Assembly: GCF_037975245.1 (NCBI RefSeq)
Contig: NC_092569.1
Span: 13,722,501 to 13,786,500 of the forward strand
Length of the DNA stretch: 64,000 nucleotides
Origin: Apostichopus japonicus
Taxonomy: Eukaryota > Echinodermata > Holothuroidea > Aspidochirotida > Stichopodidae
Reading direction: 5' to 3'
Positions 1 to 64,000 of this stretch are shown piece after piece (position 1 is the stretch's first letter; each line of letters starts with the position of its first letter). Below the pieces are notes generated by a model, which was not told where the DNA came from, did no database searches, and saw only the letters and a program-made list of their open reading frames with translations. The position numbers were made by a program, and so were the translations under genes.

Positions 1-720
1 TCACATAAGTTTATCTGGATTTTGTTTAAAGGTGGTATAGAGAATTCCAAATTCCCATGATGTTTTTCCCTCTTTAACTTTGAACAATTTTTATGTTTAT
101 ACACAAATATTGTTTGCATTCTGACGTATAAGTTTTTAAACTTTTCCCAAAATAATTAATATTATATACAAATGTAATATAGTAAGCTACTTTATAGTTT
201 CAATCAAATATTTAAATTAATGCCTCATTATTGTGTTTTGCTTAAATTTGTAAATCATCAGTCAGCATGTATTATCTGAAGGTAAAGTTAAATACTATTT
301 TGGTAACCAATGCGATAGTTAATCTACTGTAAATCAAACACGCCTAGATGTATAGAAAGATTAAACAAGAAAAGTATCAATTTGAAACTCATACAAAACA
401 CATTTTCAAAACGATTCTTACCGAAAATATTTTACTAAATTTCTATCATCGGGTTGCGCGTCATAAACTACTTTTCTTAATTATATTTTTAAGTTAATTA
501 TAACAAGGGTATTGAGGATGGCAGTGTGGTGTACTCTAATAAACAAAATTTAAGCAAAAAATGTCAAATAATAAGGGAACAAAGTACAAGTTTGCAGGTT
601 TATCCAAAGAACGCTTATTTCTGGTCGACCCAAATAAATCTTAAAAAGCTCTTTATAAAAACCTCCATTTAGAAAGATATAGTGCTGTAACACTCTACTT
701 GACAATACGATCAAATAAGT
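1..720. other. AT-rich non-coding stretch upstream of first array
   Basis: I see no convincing exon here. The only structure is a segment at about 197-350 that recurs at about 2668-2822. The 5' end of the fibrinogen-like gene, including its signal peptide, was not found and probably lies left of the window. Confidence 0.5.
197..350 (+). repeat. Direct repeat copy 1 (partner 2668-2822)
   Basis: About 150 bp beginning GTTTCAATCAAATATTTAAA is repeated at about 2668-2822 with scattered substitutions. Each copy precedes one of the two tandem arrays, which suggests that an intron segment was duplicated along with an ancestral repeat unit. Confidence 0.8.
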
Positions 721-829
721 TACACACCAAATGAAAACAACCTTTGATCATATATTTTCTTCAACATATTCTCCTGGCAAAGGAATTCCAAGAACTACTC
801 AGGATATACTGACCTCTTCTACTGCACAG

Positions 830-884
830 AAATCAGAGGATAAACCATCCACAGAAGCTGTTGGTAGCACTAATAATTCATCAA
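830..884 (+). CDS. Candidate Ser/Thr-rich exon of the fibrinogen-like gene
   Basis: A pyrimidine-rich acceptor ending in GCACAG precedes an open stretch encoding KSEDKPSTEAVGSTNNSS, and a GTGGGT donor follows. The length is 55 nt, phase 0 in and phase 1 out, which matches the phase-1 entry of the downstream stalk exons. The composition (Ser, Thr, Asn, Pro) fits a glycosylated stalk. Its 3' half is the unit that recurs in the adjacent tandem array. No start codon with a signal peptide was found, so this would be an internal exon. Splice usage is inferred. Confidence 0.35.
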
Positions 885-1938
885 GTGGGTACACGTACTT
901 TTGCATATTAGGAGGTTATCTGTTGTAATCATGCATACATTTATCATCATAGAAGCTGTTGGTAGCAATAATAATCCAACAAGTGGGTATACGTACTTTA
1001 GCATATTAGGAGGTTATCTGTTGTAACCATGCATGCATACATATACCATCCACAGAAGCTGTTGGTAGCACTAATAATTCATCAAGTGGGTACACGTACT
1101 TTTGCATATTAGGAGGTTATCTGTTGTAATCATGCATACATTTATCATCACAGAAGCTGTTGGTAGCACTAATAATCCAACAAGTGGGTATACGTACTTT
1201 TGCATATTAGGAGGTTTTCTGTTGTAACCATGCATGCATACATATACCATCCACAGAAGCTGTTGGTAGCACTTATAATTCATCAAGTGGGTACACGTAC
1301 TTTTACAAATTAGGAGGTTATCTGTTGTAATCATGCATACATTTATCATCATAGAAGCTGTTGGTAGCAATAATAATCCAACAAGTGGGTATACCTACTT
1401 TAGCATATTTGGAGGTTCCCTGTTGTAACCATGCATGCATACATATACCATCCACAGAAGCTGTTGGTAGCACTAATAATTCATCAAGTGGGTACACGTA
1501 CTTTTGCATATTAGGAGGTTATCTGTTGTAATCATGCATACATTTATCATCACAGAAGCTGTTGGTAGCACTAATAATCCAACAAGTGGGTATACGTACT
1601 TTTGCATATTAGGAGGTTTTCTGTTGTAACCATGCATGCATACATATACCATCCACAGAAGCTGTTGGTAGCACTTATAATTCATCAAGTGGGTACACGT
1701 ACTTTTACAAATTAGGAGGTTATCTGTTGTAATCATGCATACATTTATCATCACAGAAGCTGTTGGTAGCACTAATAATCCAACAAGTGGGTATACGTAC
1801 TTTTGCATATTAGGAGGTTTTCTGTTGTAACCATGCATGCATACATTTACCATCCACAGAAGCTGTTGGTAGCACTAATACACTACCAAGTGGGTATACG
1901 TACTTTTGCATATTAGGAGGTTATCTGTTATAACCTTT
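845..1938 (+). repeat. Tandem array, alternating 98/103-bp units (201-bp dimer)
   Basis: The landmark AGAAGCTGTTGGTAGC occurs at 853, 951, 1054, 1152, 1255, 1353, 1456, 1554, 1657, 1755 and 1858. Spacings alternate 98 and 103 bp, so the dimer is exactly 201 bp. Variants such as ACTTATAATTC and ACAAATTAGG recur every second dimer, giving a 402-bp higher-order unit. Each half-unit carries a possible acceptor (…CACAG or …CATAG) and a GTGGGTA donor-like site enclosing 30 nt that would be phase 1-1. Open frames on the minus strand through the array are repeat shadows. Confidence 0.9.
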
Positions 1939-1944
1939 CACATG

Positions 1945-2667
1945 CATGTATACAAACTTCGATGCCCAAGAGTGGCATTACTTTAAGAATTTGTCTCGTT
2001 TCGACAACATGTTTATACAAACCTAACATAATTTTTAAAATTTAAAGCAATATCTTTTATTTTGTTAATATGTAATTTACATTCGAATGTTGGTTAATTA
2101 GATGTTTTCTGGATTGCACACAACCACAACTTGGTGTAAATAATGTGTATAGAACAATAACAACTGGATTTCTCATTTGGCGTAGGAACGGGAGAATCTA
2201 CTGAAACTACGTTGATCCCTCCTACCATATTTACAGATTTTCTGTCGATACCAGTTGTAAATATGAGTACCCAGACACCAGTCGGTAGGTGTAAACATGT
2301 ATTATAATTGTCAAATATCACCTCCATGGTTTTCCTACATAGGCCTATATGTTAGCTCTTTATAACAGGATGTCGTTGAATGCTCTGATTTATATATGTG
2401 TTAGAATGTAGTATTTTCCGCTTCTGTGATTATTTGGAGAAGGGGTGTGGGTTGAATTATATTTCATGACAGGAATATACCATAAACAAGCAAAATTGGT
2501 TTCATGTTTTTTTTTACGTATATGTTTGTTTAACATTTAACTCATTTTATACCAATAACTCGTTTTAACAAATGAGATTATATGACCATTAACATAAATG
2601 TCAGTCAAAACTATTTCTTATTAATTGACTCTGACGAAATCGACATTGATTAACCGACAACTGTAAA
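1945..2667. other. Non-coding spacer between the two arrays
   Basis: I see no exon, RNA gene or clear mobile element here. It is most likely intronic, because candidate stalk exons lie on both sides. Confidence 0.5.
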
Positions 2668-2849: not shown

Positions 2850-5010
2850 CACATTAATTATGCATTATTAAGTTTTTCATAAACATCCTTCCTATCCTTG
2901 TTTAGGTAAGACAGTGCAAGAATCAAAGAAACCAACTACTGCAGTCACTAATGAACCACAAGGCACGACTCTAGGTAAGTCCCGTAGCATATCAAGCGCA
3001 CTACTGATACCATGTGTTAATAGAAGAAATCACATTAATTATGCATTATTAAGTTTTTCATAAACATCCTTCCTATCCTTGTTTAGGTAAGACAGTGCAA
3101 GAATCAAAGAAACCAACTACTGCAGTTACTACTGAGCCACAAGGCACGACTCTAGGTAAGTCCCGGGGTATATCAAGCGCACTACTGATACCATGTGTTA
3201 ATAGAAGAAATCACATTAATTATGCATTATTAAGTTTTTCATAAACATCCTTCCTATACTTTTTAGGTAAGACAATGCAAGAATCAGAGGAACCAATTAC
3301 TGCAGTCACTACTGAACCACAAGGCATGACTCTAGGTAAGTCCCGTAGCATATCAAGCGCACTACTGATACCATGTGTTAATAGAAGAAATCACATTAAT
3401 TATACATTATTAAGTTTTTCATAAACATCCTTCCTATCCTTGTTTAGGTAAGACAGTGCAAGAATCAAAGAAACCAACTACTGCAGTTACTACTGAGCCA
3501 CAATGCACGACTCTAGGTAAGTCCCGGGGTATATCAAGCGCACTACTGATACCATGTGTTAATAGAAGAAATCACATTAATTATGCATTATTAAGTTTTT
3601 CATAAACATCCTTCCTATACTTTTTAGGTAAGACAATGCAAGAATCAGAGGAACCAATTACTGCAGTCACTACTGAACCACAAGGCATGACTCTAGGTAA
3701 GTCCCGTAGCATATCAAGCGCACTACTGATACCATGTGTTAATAGAAGAAATCACATTAATTATACATTATTAAGTTTTTCATAAACATCCTTCCTATCC
3801 TTGTTTAGGTAAGACAGTGCAAGAATCAAAGAAACCAACTACTGCAGTTACTACTGAGCCACAAGGCACGACTCTAGGTAAGTCCCGGGGTATATCAAGC
3901 GCACTACTGATACCATGTGTTAATAGAAGAAATCACATTAATTATGCATTATTAAGTTTTTCATAAACATCCTTCCTATACTTTTTAGGTAAGACAATGC
4001 AAGAATCAAAGGAACCAATTACTGCAGTCACTACTGAACCACAAGGCATGACTCTAGGTAAGTCCCGTAGCATATCAAGCGCACTACTGATACCATGTGT
4101 TAATAGAAGAAATCACATTAATTATACATTATTAAGTTTTTCATAAACATCCTTCCTATCCTTGTTTAGGTAAGACAGTGCAAGAATCAAAGAAACCAAC
4201 TACTGCAGTTACTACTGAGCCACAAGGCACGACTCTTGGTAAGTCCCGGGGTATATCAAGCGCACAACTTACATTATGTGTTAATAGATGCATTATTCAA
4301 TTGTTCATAAACATCCTTCCTATCCTTGTTTAGGTAAGACAATGCAAGAATCAAAGGAACCAACTACTGCAGTCACTACTGAACCACAAGGCACGACTCT
4401 AGGTAAGTCCCGTAGCATATCAAGCGCACAACTCACATTATGTGTTAATAAAAGTAATCACATTAATGATGCATTATTAAGTTTTTCATAAACATCCTTC
4501 CTATCCCTTTTTAGGTAAGACAGTGCAAGAATCTGAGGATCCAACTACTGCAGTCACTACTGAGCCACAAGGCACGACTCTAGGTAAGTCCCGTAGCATA
4601 TCAAGCGCAAAACTCACATTATGTGTTAATAGAAGAAATCACATTAATGATGCATTATTCAATTGTTCATAAACATCCTTCCTATCCTTGTTTAGGTAAG
4701 ATAGTGCAAGAATCAAAGGAACCAACTACTGCAGTCACTACTGAACCACAAGGCACGACTCTAGGTAAGTCCCGTAGCATATCAAGCGCACTACTGATAT
4801 CATGTGTTAATAGAAGAAATCACATTAATTATGCATTATAAAATTGTTTATAAACATCCTTCCTATCCTTGTTTAGGTAAGACAGTGCAAGAATCAAAGG
4901 AACCAACTACTGCAGTCACTACTGAGCCACAAGGCATGACTCTTGGTAAGTCCCGTAGCATATCAAGCGCACTACAGATATCATGTGATAATAGAAGAAA
5001 TCACATTAAG
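2850..5010 (+). repeat. Tandem array of about 180-bp units, each with one 69-nt exon
   Basis: Twelve units, each with a conserved acceptor (CTATCCTTGTTTAG or CTATACTTTTTAG), a 69-nt exon and a GTAAGTCCCG donor. Exons: 2906-2974, 3087-3155, 3267-3335, 3448-3516, 3628-3696, 3809-3877, 3989-4057, 4170-4238, 4334-4402, 4515-4583, 4696-4764, 4877-4945. Copies 2, 4, 6 and 8 are one variant and copies 3, 5 and 7 another. Each series is spaced exactly 361 bp, so the middle of the array grew by two-unit duplications. Unit 9 is shortened to a 164-bp spacing. Confidence 0.95.
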
Positions 5011-7991
5011 TTGCAATCAGCTTTCCGCCGTTAAGTTCATATAAGGATGTTTCAACATGGAAAAATGAAACAAAACATAATAATCATGATATTTCAAAGC
5101 TAAACTGCTCTTATCTCCATGCAGTTTCTTCGATATATACGTGTCCTCCGAACATGATCTATGGAAACTGCACTTGTGAAGCAACATGTGAAGATCCCAA
5201 AGGAGAGTCTGCTTGTCACAGTACCTGTTTGGGTAGCATGGGTTGTATCTGCAAAGCTGGATTAATGCTGAATGGAAGTGACTGTATCAGTGCGAGTAGA
5301 TGCAGCTGTTTCGTTGCAGAGGCCAACTTGGTTATATCGGTGAGTTTTTGTGACGTCTATTTAAATGTCAGATGACATTTCTAATGGATATTTAATCAGA
5401 GAATTAAATTTATCTGACAAAATTGTCTTTCTTCCAACTTAAAATTTTACATTTGATCTGTTTTAGAAAAGAAAACCATACGTTAACGATAACTGCACCC
5501 AGAAGTGTTCCTGTAGCAATAACCGACTGATCTGTGAAGATGACTACAGCTGTAGTACTAATGCTGTGTGTGATGTCCAGAATGAAGTACGACAGTGTTA
5601 TTGTAATAATGGATATGTAGGGTACGGTGAAGATTGTCGATCCCTTAGAGACTGCCAGGATGTTTATGACGCTGGACGTACAAAAGATGGCGTTTATACA
5701 ATCATGCCTACTGGATGGCCTGGTTTACCATTCAACGTATCTTGTAGAATGGGAAACGGTGGAGGATGGACCGTAAGTCTTGATTGAAACATAATGAATA
5801 TTTCAAGTATGTTTCTGTGAGTTTTGTTGACTAAGTCTATTGTTGACAGTAATGCAAGTCCAAGTTTCTGTTTTCGGTTTGGTTGCACTTTTATAATTCC
5901 TTACCAGGTATTGAGTGTATCAAAAATACTTTAGTGGAAGAAAAGTGTGACAACACGAAAAATTCCCACCCCCTAAAGAAAACAAAAACAAAGAAACGTC
6001 CTACATTTATCTTACTGAAATAGTATTCTATTAATATATTCGTGCGGTGTTTCTTAATTTAAGTTGCATGTTACCATGCTTCACGACTCTCGTCATTATA
6101 TTTCTTTCATTGTATTTATTCGCAATATTTTCAGGTGTTTCAACGTCGTACCGATGGCTCTACTAGTTTTTATCAGAACTGGGCTGCGTACAAGGACGGG
6201 TTTGGTGACAGCAGGAACTTATGGCTAGGAAATGAAAAGCTTCATTACTTGACGAACCAGAGAAACTACAAGCTTCGCTTTGACATCACTACTCTTACTG
6301 GATCTGATACATATGCTGAGTATACAGAATTTCAAGTCGAGTCTGAAAGCAATAAGTACAGAATGAATAAACTGGGCAATCACAGTGGAAATACAGGTTT
6401 GTTACATATTTGATGTTTGCGCCTTGCCTTGGATAATAGGTCAAGTTTGTGTTCACAATAAACTTTATGAGAAAATGTTGGTCACGGTTTGAACACATCT
6501 TGATGTTAAATAATTACTCCAAAATGTGCTATAAGTACACTGGATCAGAAACCCTTACAAAGAGGGTTTGTTGTAACACCCAACCCCCTTTACAAGTCAC
6601 GCCGCCGTTTCTACGGTTGTATAGACGAGATTAGTAAAAAGTCGATGATCCATTTCTGGGTATGTATGATAAAATTCACGCATTAATTAGAACAGAAAAC
6701 AAATAGACACAAAACAAAAACGAATAAATAATACCACGCATATTGAACCATCTTAATAAGTTACAATTGACGTGAAGAACCATCCTTACATTCGCCAGTT
6801 TTGGTGTTGTAACATTGGAAGAGCAAAGAAGGTTTTGTCCCGAACGGGATTTGAGCAAATGATCTGATTAATTGCAAACAATTCTCGTTCCATCTGGACC
6901 CGTTACTTTAAAGAACAGATATGTGTTAGATAGTTACCGTATCACCATATCAATTGGATACCGGTGGTACTATTTACAAAATATTGAAGTAGTCTGACTA
7001 ACCGATGAAAAAGAAAATATATTGCATGAGCAAGCATCAGTCTAAGAACAGGAAATATTATGGAAGAGACCATATATTTTCACAGAACCATTAATAGACA
7101 ATAAATATTGAGAGTTTCCAGTGAACAAATACTACTAACAGAATAATGTTTTTACAAGATCTGCGAAACAATTATACCAAGAAGAGTCACACACCATCTT
7201 TGAAGACAAAGACGACCCGAGACATAGATAAAATTGTAATGTGAAAATAATAACTAAAAACTAGTTAATGGAACGCCCAGTTGTTAGCTCTCCTTTAAAG
7301 CCAAGTTCAATATTTACTAATTTAATCATAATATTTAATATCATCAGACAATCATTTCTTGTAGACAAGCTTAATTTGTATGTTACTATTCACCAGTGAA
7401 TTTAAATCCAGATCACATCCATTAGTAAGGAGCCTTATTGAAATAAAGAACTATCAAGAATAAATCAGCACATGAAATATATAATGATTACTCAATTATC
7501 ACATTAAAAATGAATTCTGGATATCTCTAAATTAAATCACCCTTACCCCACCCACAACCCTTCTTTTTCCAGTTTACTTGAAAACTTATTTTATGTCCCA
7601 ACAAAAGTGTGCAATATAACCGGATACTAACGCTATTGTTTAATGACTAAGTATCAACCACTGAAAGTTCTTGCTGTTTTCCTTCACAGGTAATTTTCTC
7701 TATTATAACAGAGGAAAACAATTCAGCACGCATGACCGAGACAATGACGCATGTGGTAACTTCGACTGTGCAGAGAAGCACAGAAGTGGCTGGTGGCACT
7801 CGGATACTGGGTGCTCTACTTGTGGTAGTAATAGCGAATGCTCTTCTTTCCAATACAGCAGCAGCTGTCAGTCATATTGTACTCCTGAAAACCTCAACGG
7901 TGTCTACGATGGAGACAACGGGGAAATGATCTACTCTCATTCTAACTGCAACCCCCAATATGTTGAGATGAATATTCGACCATCCTCTTGA
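2906..7991 (+). CDS. Mucin-stalk / TIL / EGF-like / fibrinogen-domain secreted protein (5'-partial)
   Basis: Sixteen exons join in consistent phase: twelve 69-nt stalk exons (positions under the array entry), 5125-5339, 5467-5772, 6135-6396 and 7690-7991, ending in TGA. They give about 636 residues without the missing N-terminus. Domain order: a Thr/Pro/Glu-rich stalk of twelve 23-residue repeats (PTTAVTTEPQGTTL type), a Cys-rich TIL domain, an EGF-like segment, then a complete FReD. FReD proteins (ficolins, FREPs, tachylectins) are secreted lectins that often bind acetylated sugars; a recognition role is inferred from the family. Phases run 1-1 through the stalk, then 1-0, 0-0, 0-1, 1-end. 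The signal peptide and first exons were not found. The minus-strand gene at 58.8-61.3 kb has the same exon plan. Confidence 0.85.
5125..5772 (+). CDS. TIL and EGF-like exons of the left fibrinogen-like gene
   Basis: Exon 5125-5339 (215 nt, phase 1-0) encodes a trypsin-inhibitor-like cysteine-rich domain starting CPPNMIYGNCTCEATC and ending at RCSCFVAEANLVIS. Exon 5467-5772 (306 nt, phase 0-0) continues with CTQKCSC, then an EGF-like pattern CSTNAVCDV…CYCNNGYVGYGEDC. The same exon enters the FReD at DCQDVYDAGRTKDGVYTI and ends at NGGGWT. Donors are GTGAGT and GTAAGT. This TIL plus EGF-like arrangement resembles von Willebrand-type assemblies (zonadhesin, tectorin) and is probably extracellular. 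A protease-inhibitor function is not implied. Confidence 0.85.
6135..7991 (+). CDS. Fibrinogen C-terminal domain exons of the left gene
   Basis: Exon 6135-6396 begins VFQRRTDGSTSFYQNW and includes the FReD hallmarks YKDGFGD, LWLGNEKLHYLT and YKLRFD. Exon 7690-7991 carries NFLYYNRGKQFSTHDRDND, the usual calcium-binding acidic stretch, then the HRSGWWH variant of the WWY block, a Cys-rich insert, NLNGVY and the terminal EMNIRP before TGA. The intron between these exons is about 1.3 kb with nothing recognisable in it. The C-terminal third has more cysteines than a standard FReD, so its disulfide pattern may differ. Confidence 0.9.
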
Positions 7992-58779: not shown

Positions 58780-61343
<2,564 letters not shown>

Positions 61344-62469
61344 CTAGATTAAAACAAAACAAGCAGAGATCAAGGGTCGTTTTGAATATTGTGTGATGGG
61401 AAGTGGGGGGGGGGGTGTAGGGGAGGAGGGTTAAGTATGATCGAGCTCCAGCATGTTAGCAAAGTAAATAAACAATAAAGCAGACTAGTAAATGGACGAG
61501 GATAGAGGGTCAGTGGATTTAAAGAAGTCAAATCAATTTCAGAATGGAAGTGTTTAAAACATAAGACAAAGTAAAGATAGTGTCATCCAGAGGAGGGGGG
61601 AGGGGGGAGCTAACAATACTGGGAGGTTGCCACAACCATTGCAATGCCACCCTGCCAGAACTGCTTAGCCGTAAAAGAAAGAAAAATATAATATATGTCA
61701 TGACTTGTCATTTCCAAGCTTTCATAGATGTATCAGCATTTCTCCATACACATTTTTTTTTAATATAGAATATCAGTCGGACTACAAAAGGCTGTGAAAT
61801 GAAAAGTACACAAAAAATGTATTTGGCTGCACGCTATATGAGACAAAACGTTGCAGCTGAACATCGACTGGAAAGTACAAGTAACAAGGTTAAAAAACAG
61901 TTCTATTTGGAGAGACCACTCAATGACGTCACAATGGGAACACGTATTATTCTTCCGTGTTTGTTCTCTGTATATTAATAACACAATTCCCATGCACAAA
62001 TTGCAGAGGTTACGTCCCTAGTTTATAGAACAATATTTAATGTACGGATAATGACGACGTATAAACTAACATCTAGTTGGAACAGTTGAGGGGGTGGTGT
62101 ATCAATAAAAGCGGCGATAGATTCGCTTTACTCTAAGAAACAAGGTCATAAAAAAACAAACAATCTTCAACACTGAGGGACATTCAATGAAACAGTTATA
62201 TTGGGGATCTATAGTCCTTATTTCGTAAATTTACAAAATGCCCTCAGCATTAGGCCATCATCATGATCTGTACAATCGATCAAAGCCATTTTATAGAAAA
62301 AAGAACGTGTTAATATTACGGTATTAGCTAAAGAAATAGCCACTTCATGCATATATAACGTTGAAAACGAAAGTTGGCAACTTAGCCTTTAATTACTGGA
62401 ATTGCTTGAATAATATCGATTTGTTTTTAAAACGTTTGCGTCAGTAACATTCTGAGAGCTGTAACTCAC
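61344..62469. other. Intron or spacer where a terminal FReD exon is expected but absent
   Basis: I looked on the minus strand for the calcium-site block (RDND), WWY and NLNG words and found none. G-run at about 61408. Nothing else recognised. Confidence 0.5.
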
Positions 62470-64000
62470 TTGCAGTATTACGTTCTGTACCAAGATCCCC
62501 CATCAAAACATAGCTGTTCTTTTCATCGCCGATACGGAAATGATCAAACGTCACGTGATACGATTGTCCTTTAGCATCCGTGATATCTATTCGTAGTTGA
62601 TACTTTTTTTGCTGTGTTAGATAAGCAATCTTCTCATTTCCCAGCCAAAATTCAGTTCCCAGAAACCCGAATCCTTGCTTGTAGTGCTCCCAATTTCGAT
62701 TGAAGTCGATTGAACCACTTGTCCGTCGTTGTATTACCTATAGTACGTATTGCAGAGATATGTCTGTGGGTCATTCCTCTCCTATACTTTCTTATCAAAC
62801 ACCGGTTGAAATTTTTCTTGTAAAACATTACAGAACAATTATATAAGTGATTCATGCATGGACCCCAAAAACAAGATATTTTATGATCAGACTTATTGTC
62901 TTCAATAGATAAAATACCTTGGGTCTATAGCTTACTCCACATATTGAAGTTAGTTCAATCAAAGATGCTTTATAAGGAAGAAATAATTCCGTTTTATATT
63001 AATATAATATACTTAGTGCAACTAAGATATGACATAAAACGTACCGTCCACCCTCCGGTACCTGGGTCACCATCACAGTATACTTCGAACGACTTCGGGA
63101 AACCAGCTGGTTTGATTCTGTACACACCAGATGTATTGTGGGTATTTGAGCATACACGTGGAATTTCATGACAATCTCTCGGAAACACGGCCGTTTGAAA
63201 CCCAAAATAAGAGATCGCTATATACGGGAATATACAGAATCTGTTTCAGACAGTGCATGGTGTCAAAAAAAAAATTGTTTTTTTGTGCTTTGTGAATATA
63301 CCTGTGTATTCATTAATATGTACATAAACTTTTCGCACAGAGATGTTTGTATGATTCAAATCAGTTTAGCCTGATTGTTAGTAATTAAATATGTAGACTT
63401 ATTTGTATCTAAGTAACATTTGGTTTTTTGGCTTTGATTTCATATGCAGGACCATCTATGAAGGACTACATTTAAAAATCCGCCCTTCAATACCACCGCC
63501 ATAAACGTTTACCTGCCACAGTGTGGACAGTGGCGAAAATGAACGGCAGCCTTACTAAAGGGCGGATTTTCAAATTATCTATGGATGACTATCTTCAAGG
63601 ACTATCTATGATCCATGATGAAACGCTTTGCATTTCGTCTTGAAAGAAAAGCTAGGAAATGCTGAGTTCTAGCAAAATGTAAGCCGACCTTGTAGTTTTA
63701 TGCATCGATATGAAATGTATTTGTTGTAAGTTCTATATGTTCAAATAAACAAATATATATGGTAAACTTGACAAAATTCGTTACCCATTAATGATATTTT
63801 TAAAATGCAAATTCCATTTTCGGCAACGATGACTTAAGACAAGCAAACTCTCCACCCAATCATGGAATGTAATAAGGAACGTGAAAAGAACTTCTACATT
63901 TTTGTTTAAGTTTGTACTTTCTCCGCTAAGGTCGTGTTAAAGTGAATTGTAAAACAGTTAACTTACTCGTCGATGGATCTGTGACGTCAGCAAAAGTCTG
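62470..64000 (-). CDS. Thr-rich exon and FReD lacking its last exon (5'-partial; may join the TIL gene)
   Basis: Exon 63967-64000 (runs off the window) reads QTFADVTDPST and ends in phase 1 at GTAAGT. Exon 63045-63175 (start inferred, phase 1-0) reads DCHEIPRVCSNTHNTSGVYR and FPKSFEVYCD … TGGWT. Exon 62470-62737 (phase 0-1) reads VIQRRTSGSIDFNRNWEHYK, FWLGNEKIAYLT and FRIGDEKNSYVLMGDLGT. The third FReD exon, with the calcium site and the ligand-pocket end, is not found before the TIL exon. This exon's phase 1 matches the TIL exon at 61343, so one transcript with a truncated FReD, then TIL, EGF and a full FReD is possible. Alternatively this is a separate truncated gene. Confidence 0.7.

What the first reader, a model, noticed from the sequence alone, without database searches (positions are those of the whole stretch)
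2906..4945. Twelve tandem frame-neutral cassette exons encode a variable mucin-like stalk
Seen: twelve 69-nt exons with intact acceptors and donors, all phase 1-1, upstream of a phase-1 TIL exon in the same frame. No copy has a stop codon in frame. Any subset can therefore be spliced, and array expansion or contraction changes stalk length by 23 residues without a frameshift. Known: fibrinogen-domain lectins are immune recognition molecules in many invertebrates. Inference: this is a built-in length-diversification system for a secreted lectin, by alternative splicing or by copy-number polymorphism.
Basis: partly seen in the sequence, partly recalled or inferred. Interest (0 to 1): 0.88.

Follow-up and report, generated by a model that had tools for sequence, protein, structure and literature searches.

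The report
Tandem stalk-exon array in lectin-like gene
A sea-cucumber-like genome carries a fibrinogen-domain gene whose stalk is coded by twelve near-identical, frame-neutral mini-exons, and sister genes carry one to thirteen copies, so gene evolution appears to add or remove stalk length in 23-residue steps.

Summary
Window 2906-4945 holds twelve 69-nt exons, AG/GT bounded, phase 1-1, open in the frame of the TIL exon at 5125; the exons from TIL to the stop at 7991 are intact. New here: the same exon lies upstream of all 19 close TIL copies found in this genome (window included), in 1 (nine loci), 2, 3, 4, 5, 12 or 13 copies. Between loci the exon is 1.7 to 3 times less variable than its flanking introns, and the splice sites less still. 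Copies cluster by locus, and window copies 2-7 form three 361-bp dimers 99.4% identical, so expansions are partly locus-private and recent. I read it as germline amplification of an ancestral single stalk exon that sets stalk length per gene, most copies probably included. The closest precedent found is the Schistosoma SmPoMuc mucin family. New variant of a known kind.

The parts
2906..2974 (+). stalk exon copy 1 (69 nt, phase 1-1)
3087..3155 (+). stalk exon copy 2
3267..3335 (+). stalk exon copy 3 (second type of the dimer)
3448..3516 (+). stalk exon copy 4
3628..3696 (+). stalk exon copy 5
3809..3877 (+). stalk exon copy 6
3989..4057 (+). stalk exon copy 7
4170..4238 (+). stalk exon copy 8
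4334..4402 (+). stalk exon copy 9
4515..4583 (+). stalk exon copy 10
4696..4764 (+). stalk exon copy 11
4877..4945 (+). stalk exon copy 12
3011..4093 (+). three 361-bp dimer units (copies 2-7), any two differing at 2 of 361 bases
5125..5339 (+). TIL (trypsin inhibitor-like) exon, phase 1 to 0
   Evidence: PF01826, 31.1 bits, cut-off 24.5
5467..5772 (+). exon with TILa-like match (26.5 bits, just under cut-off 27), weak EGF_3 match and the first part of the fibrinogen domain
6135..6396 (+). fibrinogen-C domain, second exon
7690..7991 (+). fibrinogen-C domain, last exon; stop codon TGA ends at 7991
783..884 (+). predicted upstream stalk exon, 102 nt, phase 1-1 (boundaries read by eye from the sequence)
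953..1889 (+). ten further 30-nt candidate microexons (KAVGSTNNSS-like), each AG...GTGGGT, phase 1-1; the eleventh copy (855-884) is the tail of exon 783-884
2186..2284 (+). predicted stalk exon, 99 nt, phase 1-1

Best explanation
The array is a recent, largely locus-specific germline amplification of one ancestral symmetric (phase 1-1) stalk exon in a fibrinogen-domain gene family. The ancestral gene is: signal-peptide exon, one 69-nt stalk exon, TIL exon, TILa/EGF-like exon, fibrinogen-C exons. Unequal exchange between 180-bp units, later between 361-bp dimers, added whole exon-plus-intron units. Because each unit is flanked by consensus-like and nearly identical splice sites in phase 1, a new copy can be spliced in at once and lengthens a threonine-rich, probably disordered spacer between the N-terminus and the TIL/fibrinogen head by 23 residues; a lost or skipped copy does not break the frame. 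Stalk length is thus set mainly by gene copy number, with exon skipping as possible added variation. Shown: anatomy, copy-number range among paralogs, lower variability of exon and splice sites than of introns, recency. Inferred: the ancestral state, inclusion of most copies in mRNA, spacer function and disorder, variation between individuals.
For: Nineteen TIL exons at 90% identity or more, window included (which scored 40 of 72 candidates); each has at least one copy of the stalk exon upstream: n=1 at nine loci, 2 at four, 3 at one, 4 at two, 5 at one, 12 (window), 13 (C16); 58 copies. Of the 58, 55 have frame, acceptor and donor intact; one lost its acceptor and has a stop (L046) and two lost the donor GT (L034 copy 3, L037 copy 2). 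Between-locus diversity: exon 0.103, introns 0.180 and 0.304, splice sites lowest. Exon-length variants in these loci and in L031 (51, 57, 57, 48 nt; four indel events) are multiples of three, while in the TIL-less lineage (L047 type, 11 copies) L050 has +1, L056 +4, L057 +2, L063 both the +4 and the +2 with an altered acceptor, and L049 no donor. The tree of 75 units has 42 changes of locus, against 56.5 on average (lowest 52) in 200 shuffles and 26 at the least. Dimers are 99.4% identical. A signal-peptide exon lies upstream in 15 of 19 loci.
Against: No transcript was available. No signal-peptide exon is visible for the window gene, nor for L033, L035 and L036; the nearest + strand match before the window array is 117 kb away (C9:13608560), and 5,000 bases just before the window read N. 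pN/pS of the stalk exon is 1.51 between 15 loci and 1.07 within loci, against 0.56 for TIL and 0.42 for fibrinogen exon 2; within the window array alone it is 0.69. So there is no sign that its amino acids are selected to stay the same, and codon position 3 is not the most variable; the conservation may act on splicing or reflect gene conversion. One stop among 72 distinct exon changes is not clearly below the 4% expected. Several paralogs look damaged (L039 TIL deletion of 13, L040 TIL stop, L036 stop in the next exon). The tree also mixes copies of different loci (42 changes, not 26), so not every copy arose at its own locus.
Confidence: 0.6

Rival explanations
1. Programmed or stochastic alternative splicing is the main source of length variation. 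Each stalk exon begins with a donor motif, so once joined to the preceding copy the junction TAG|GTAAGA is itself a 5' splice site. Use of that recursive site instead of the exon's own donor removes the exon, so the spliceosome can hop along the array and give isoforms with 0 to 12 copies.
For: 53 of 56 TIL-linked copies scored (L046 and L064 left out) start with GT and 42 of 56 with GTAAG; in the window the rebuilt site matches 6-7 of 9 consensus positions, the true donors 7-8 of 9 (for copy 1 the preceding exon end was assumed). Annotated exons of this kind have a similar share in all deuterostomes examined, from sea urchin to human, and incomplete repression contributes to alternative splicing of several human ones (PMC6224609, passages). 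Phase 1-1 allows any subset.
Against: No RNA. The motif is not kept in all arrays: CTAAGA in two of five L033 copies, GTAGGA in seven of thirteen C16 copies; the first six exon bases are no more conserved than the exon as a whole (0.102 against 0.103). The true donor matches the consensus better in most copies, and the same paper reports that exon-junction complexes repress such sites.
Confidence: 0.22
2. The array is a neutral exon-containing minisatellite in a 5'-truncated, unexpressed paralog; the open frame only reflects its recent origin.
For: No visible signal-peptide exon; of the 18 other regions compared, the upstream part is shared only with L031/L033 and, inverted, L035/L036, though its 102-nt exon has further matches on C9; stalk pN/pS near or above 1 over the family; other paralogs are decaying.
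Against: The 361 codons from TIL to stop are intact, the TIL, TILa/EGF and fibrinogen exons of the family have pN/pS 0.42-0.72, and the missing 5' end could fall in the stretch that reads N: in L035/L036 a signal-peptide exon lies about 5.5 kb before the first 102-nt-type stalk exon on the same strand.
Confidence: 0.18

Closest known systems
SmPoMuc polymorphic mucins of Schistosoma mansoni (PMC2576457, passages read)
   Same: Gene family; signal peptide followed by a tandem array of a short exon inside a conserved exon-plus-intron repeat (intronic part over 94% identical); copy number differs among paralogs (1 to about 20 in DNA); mucin-like repeats before a constant part.
   Different: 27-bp exon in units of about 1 kb against 69 nt in 181 bp; transcript length variation is demonstrated there (1-100 repeats) and not here; the constant part was not compared with ours, and common descent was not tested.
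LPA (apolipoprotein(a)) kringle IV type 2 repeat (PMC6314250, start of abstract in search listing)
   Same: Germline copy number of a repeated coding unit makes over 40 protein isoforms; that the unit is frame-neutral is recalled.
   Different: Unit is 5.6 kb and encodes a kringle, a folded domain (recalled); polymorphism between people is established.
Recursive-splicing exons (PMC6224609, passages)
   Same: Exon begins with a partial 5' splice site that is rebuilt at the exon junction.
   Different: I saw no tandem array of them in the passages; here 12 in a row; use is untested.
Fibrinogen-related proteins of Apostichopus japonicus (PMC5638244, passages and section 16)
   Same: Expanded, clustered fibrinogen-domain genes; the genome here matches that species in size (671.58 Mb; PMC10344927 reports 671.60 Mb and 23 chromosomes, passages).
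   Different: The passages seen do not mention stalk-exon arrays; that paper relates the family to regeneration, not to stalk length.
Multi-exon mucin domains, e.g. chicken Muc13 (PMC1552070, title and start of abstract in search listing)
   Same: Mucin domain coded by multiple exons.
   Different: Not read further; not known to me to be a copy-number-variable array.

Membership tests
Fibrinogen-related proteins (fibrinogen-C domain) | fibrinogen-C domain | tested here: met
   Pfam PF00147 157.7 bits, cut-off 22, profile 3-182 of 221; ficolin-1 best solved relative, 135.3 bits
Fibrinogen-related proteins (fibrinogen-C domain) | complete C-terminal subdomain with ligand pocket (as in ficolins; recalled) | tested here: inconclusive
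   last 39 profile positions not matched; Cys-rich divergent end
Mollusc-type FREP | immunoglobulin-like domain(s) with the fibrinogen domain (start of abstract of PMC7588048 in listing) | tested here: not met
   TIL, TILa-like and weak EGF matches instead; no Ig match up to E 0.1 in the 361 residues from TIL to stop; the unseen 5' end is untested
Mucin-like (PTS) domain | tandem Pro/Thr/Ser-rich repeats | tested here: met
   P+S+T 40.2%, S+T 31.5% over 276 aa; no formal mucin predictor was run
Mucin-like (PTS) domain | dense O-glycosylation | not testable with these tools
   needs protein
SmPoMuc-like exon-array gene | tandem frame-neutral exon within a conserved exon-intron repeat, copy number differing among paralogs | tested here: met
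SmPoMuc-like exon-array gene | variable repeat number in transcripts | not testable with these tools
   no RNA held
SmPoMuc-like exon-array gene | array preceded by a signal-peptide exon | tested here: inconclusive
   15 of 19 TIL-linked loci yes; window gene not visible, 5,000 bases before the window read N
Recursive-splicing exon | exon start rebuilds a 5' splice site at the junction | tested here: met
   12 of 12 window copies begin GTAAGA; for copies 2-12 the preceding copy ends TAG (10) or TTG (1)
Recursive-splicing exon | the rebuilt site is used | not testable with these tools
   needs lariats or part-spliced RNA

The most novel reading that the evidence does not exclude
A tandem array of recursive-splicing exons acts as a molecular length dial: at each of twelve near-identical junctions the spliceosome chooses between keeping 23 residues (own donor) and erasing them (rebuilt donor), so one recognition-protein gene yields a graded distribution of stalk lengths tunable by exon-junction-complex activity, while unequal exchange resets the maximum. 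No array of this kind turned up in the searches made (most papers seen as listings only).
Probability: 0.1. Interest if true: 0.82.

Novelty: new variant of a known kind. Interest (0 to 1): 0.52.

Why it matters
One genome gives a ready series of sister genes that differ in the number of copies of the same stalk exon (1 to 13). That makes it possible to measure, with one long-read RNA data set, how exon copy number, splice-site identity and exon-start donor motifs determine inclusion, and whether stalk length changes what a fibrinogen-domain protein does. It also links an echinoderm family noted for expansion to the exon-array diversification known from schistosome mucins.

Tried and rejected
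Signal-peptide search in the window gene: ATG-led hydrophobic frames in 1-2905 gave 10 short candidates, none resembling the family's signal-peptide exon; BLAST and the genome search with that exon found nothing on the + strand nearer than C9:13608560, 117 kb before the array. A long list of hydrophobic ATG frames in upstream regions was mostly low-complexity noise and gave one conserved candidate, MERKKFFQLFHLALILIDMTDAG, ending at AA|GTAAGT in phase 1.

Purifying selection on amino acids by pN/pS: not supported (1.51 between loci), so I do not claim it. Counting in-frame stops as evidence: weak (1 of 72 distinct changes, 4% expected).

First Pfam request failed because one range was out of frame; repeated on the translated protein. 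Weak Pfam matches of the array itself (thymidylate kinase, EII-GUT, below cut-off) are taken as chance.

Rows left out of counts: L051, L060, L061 and L062 carry the stalk exon but no full TIL match in the stretch held (L060 and L061 match 29 bases of TIL; L051 is 65 nt, L062 has no donor), and are not in the 58. L031 (9 copies, no TIL behind them in the stretch held) is counted only in the exon-length tally of 67, where L046 and the two donor-less copies were given 69 nt by alignment. The tree (75 rows) leaves out L049, L050, L051, L056, L057, L062, L063, L064 and the 48-nt L031 copy. The diversity table leaves out L064; the between-locus pN/pS of the stalk exon uses 69-nt copies of 15 loci, without L046, L058, L059 and L064.

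Full report
Setting. The window is part of a 671.58-Mb genome of 35 contigs, contig C9, 13,722,501-13,786,500. [quoted passage not shown] this is inference from size. A six-frame search for the fibrinogen-C domain found 169 matches in this genome, a lower bound, most of the listed ones on C9. Expansion of fibrinogen-related genes in this species is known (PMC5638244, passages and one section).

The observation. Twelve exons of 69 nt lie at the stated coordinates. All have TTTAG before and GTAAGTCC after, all are phase 1-1, all read GKTVQESKEPTTAVTTEPQGTTL with small changes. Downstream follow TIL (5125-5339), a 306-nt exon, and two fibrinogen exons ending in a stop at 7991. Pfam: TIL 31.1 bits, TILa 26.5 (cut-off 27), Fibrinogen_C 157.7 bits over profile positions 3-182 of 221. 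The best solved relatives are ficolin-1, then angiopoietin-1.

Paralogs. A 180-bp unit searched against the genome gave 109 matches, on C9, C16, C1, C22 and C17. I fetched 20 regions and 16 short ones. Nineteen TIL exons of 90% identity or more were found, window included (it scored 40 of 72 candidates), and every one has the stalk exon upstream. Copy numbers: nine loci with 1, four with 2, one with 3, two with 4, one with 5, the window with 12, C16 with 13; together 58. Fifteen of the 19 have a signal-peptide exon 5' of the array, phase 1 at its end in the 11 copies printed. The simplest history is a single stalk exon in the ancestor. The tree puts the first copy of five multi-copy loci (L030, L034, L035, L037, L038) with the single-copy genes, apart from most later copies (support 99/99), so one early duplication probably preceded the locus-private expansions.

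Are the exons real? Between 18 loci (57 copies), diversity is 0.304 upstream and 0.180 downstream in the introns, 0.103 in the exon, 0.056 at the acceptor AG and 0.018 at the donor GT. Only phase 1 is open in 57 of 58 copies; phase 2 is open in 0 of 58 and phase 0 in 4 of 58. Length variants in TIL-linked loci and the neighbouring L031 are 57, 51 (three copies of one amplified variant), 57 and 48 nt: four indel events, all multiples of three. A lineage in which the stalk exon stands 107 bp before fibrinogen exon 2 without TIL (L047 type, 11 copies; this context was seen in L047, L048, L050 and L056) has shifts of +1 (L050), +4 (L056) and +2 (L057); L063 carries both the +4 and the +2 with an altered acceptor, and L049 lost its donor. 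Four of four events in frame against none of three is a one-sided chance of 1 in 35 by counting; the comparison was made after seeing the data. Against a protein-level reading, pN/pS is 1.51 between and 1.07 within loci, while TIL has 0.56, the next exon 0.69 and the fibrinogen exons 0.42 and 0.72; in the window array alone it is 0.69; and codon position 1 varies more than position 3. So frame and splice sites are kept, not the exact amino acids. That fits a spacer, but gene conversion or constraint on splicing signals could also explain it.

Recency. The array repeats with period 181 and also 361. Copies 3, 5 and 7 are 99-100% alike and copies 2, 4 and 6 are 99% alike; any two of three 361-bp dimers differ at 2 bases. 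The C16 array has its own alternation of 69- and 51-nt exons. The tree of 75 units from 27 loci shows 42 changes of locus, fewer than any of 200 shuffles (mean 56.5, lowest 52), though more than the minimum of 26. Array length is therefore likely to differ between individuals; one assembly cannot show it.

Splicing. Two array copies elsewhere have lost their donor GT (L034 copy 3, L037 copy 2), which would be tolerated for the same reason. With nearly identical, consensus-like sites, default inclusion of most copies is the plain expectation. One feature could change that: each window copy begins with GTAAGA, and for copies 2-12 the preceding copy ends TAG (10) or TTG (1), which rebuilds a donor at the junction (6-7 of 9 consensus matches against 7-8 for the real donor). 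Recursive-splicing exons are defined this way, have a similar share from sea urchin to human, and are normally kept by the exon-junction complex (PMC6224609, passages). The motif is not preserved in all arrays, so I rank it as a lead.

The 5' part. Upstream, the window gene has a 102-nt exon (783-884), ten further 30-nt units with AG and GTGGGT borders in phase 1-1 (953-1889), and a 99-nt exon (2186-2284). The tracts before the 30-nt units are poor in pyrimidines, and in L035/L036 many such units have lost a border, so these microexons are less certain. The 102-nt exon type is itself repeated at C9:23,760,124-23,764,620, mostly about 508 bp apart. No signal-peptide exon is visible for the window gene, and exactly 5,000 bases before the window read N.

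Comparison. The nearest known system found is SmPoMuc of Schistosoma mansoni: signal peptide, a tandemly repeated 27-bp exon in repeats of about 1 kb, up to about 20 copies in DNA and 1-100 in transcripts (PMC2576457, passages). It is alike in anatomy; its transcript variation is shown and ours is not. Searches for a description of such arrays in sea cucumber or other fibrinogen-related genes (listings, with passages of PMC5638244, and PMC13228809) showed none. Verdict: real and instructive, interpretation half proven, a new variant of a known kind.

Noticed in passing
window 855-1933: A second array: 11 copies of a 30-nt AG...GTGGGT unit alternating in a 201-bp dimer, derived from the tail of the 102-nt exon at 783-884 plus the start of its intron; candidate microexons.
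   Followed up: partly
window 189-356 and 2660-2827: A 168-nt segment duplicated (90%) before each of the two arrays; also in L031, L033 and, inverted, L035/L036.
   Followed up: partly
L031 3663-4427 and 7866-8471: About 60 kb upstream, two stalk-exon arrays (5 and 4 copies) without a TIL exon behind them in the stretch held; a third array of 5 with TIL follows in L033, so one gene may hold three arrays.
   Followed up: partly
L047, L048, L050, L056: Paralogs in which the stalk exon is followed after 107 bp by fibrinogen exon 2, lacking TIL and the first part of the domain at that place; probably dead.
   Followed up: partly
C9:23760124-23764620: The upstream 102-nt stalk exon type is tandemly arrayed with about 508-bp spacing in another gene cluster.
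   Followed up: no
window 58789-62737, minus strand: Diverged fibrinogen-domain exons (35-47% protein identity) of one or two further genes.
   Followed up: no
window 59852-60216: Trinucleotide TGA repeat, about 122 copies, near the minus-strand fibrinogen-domain exons.
   Followed up: no
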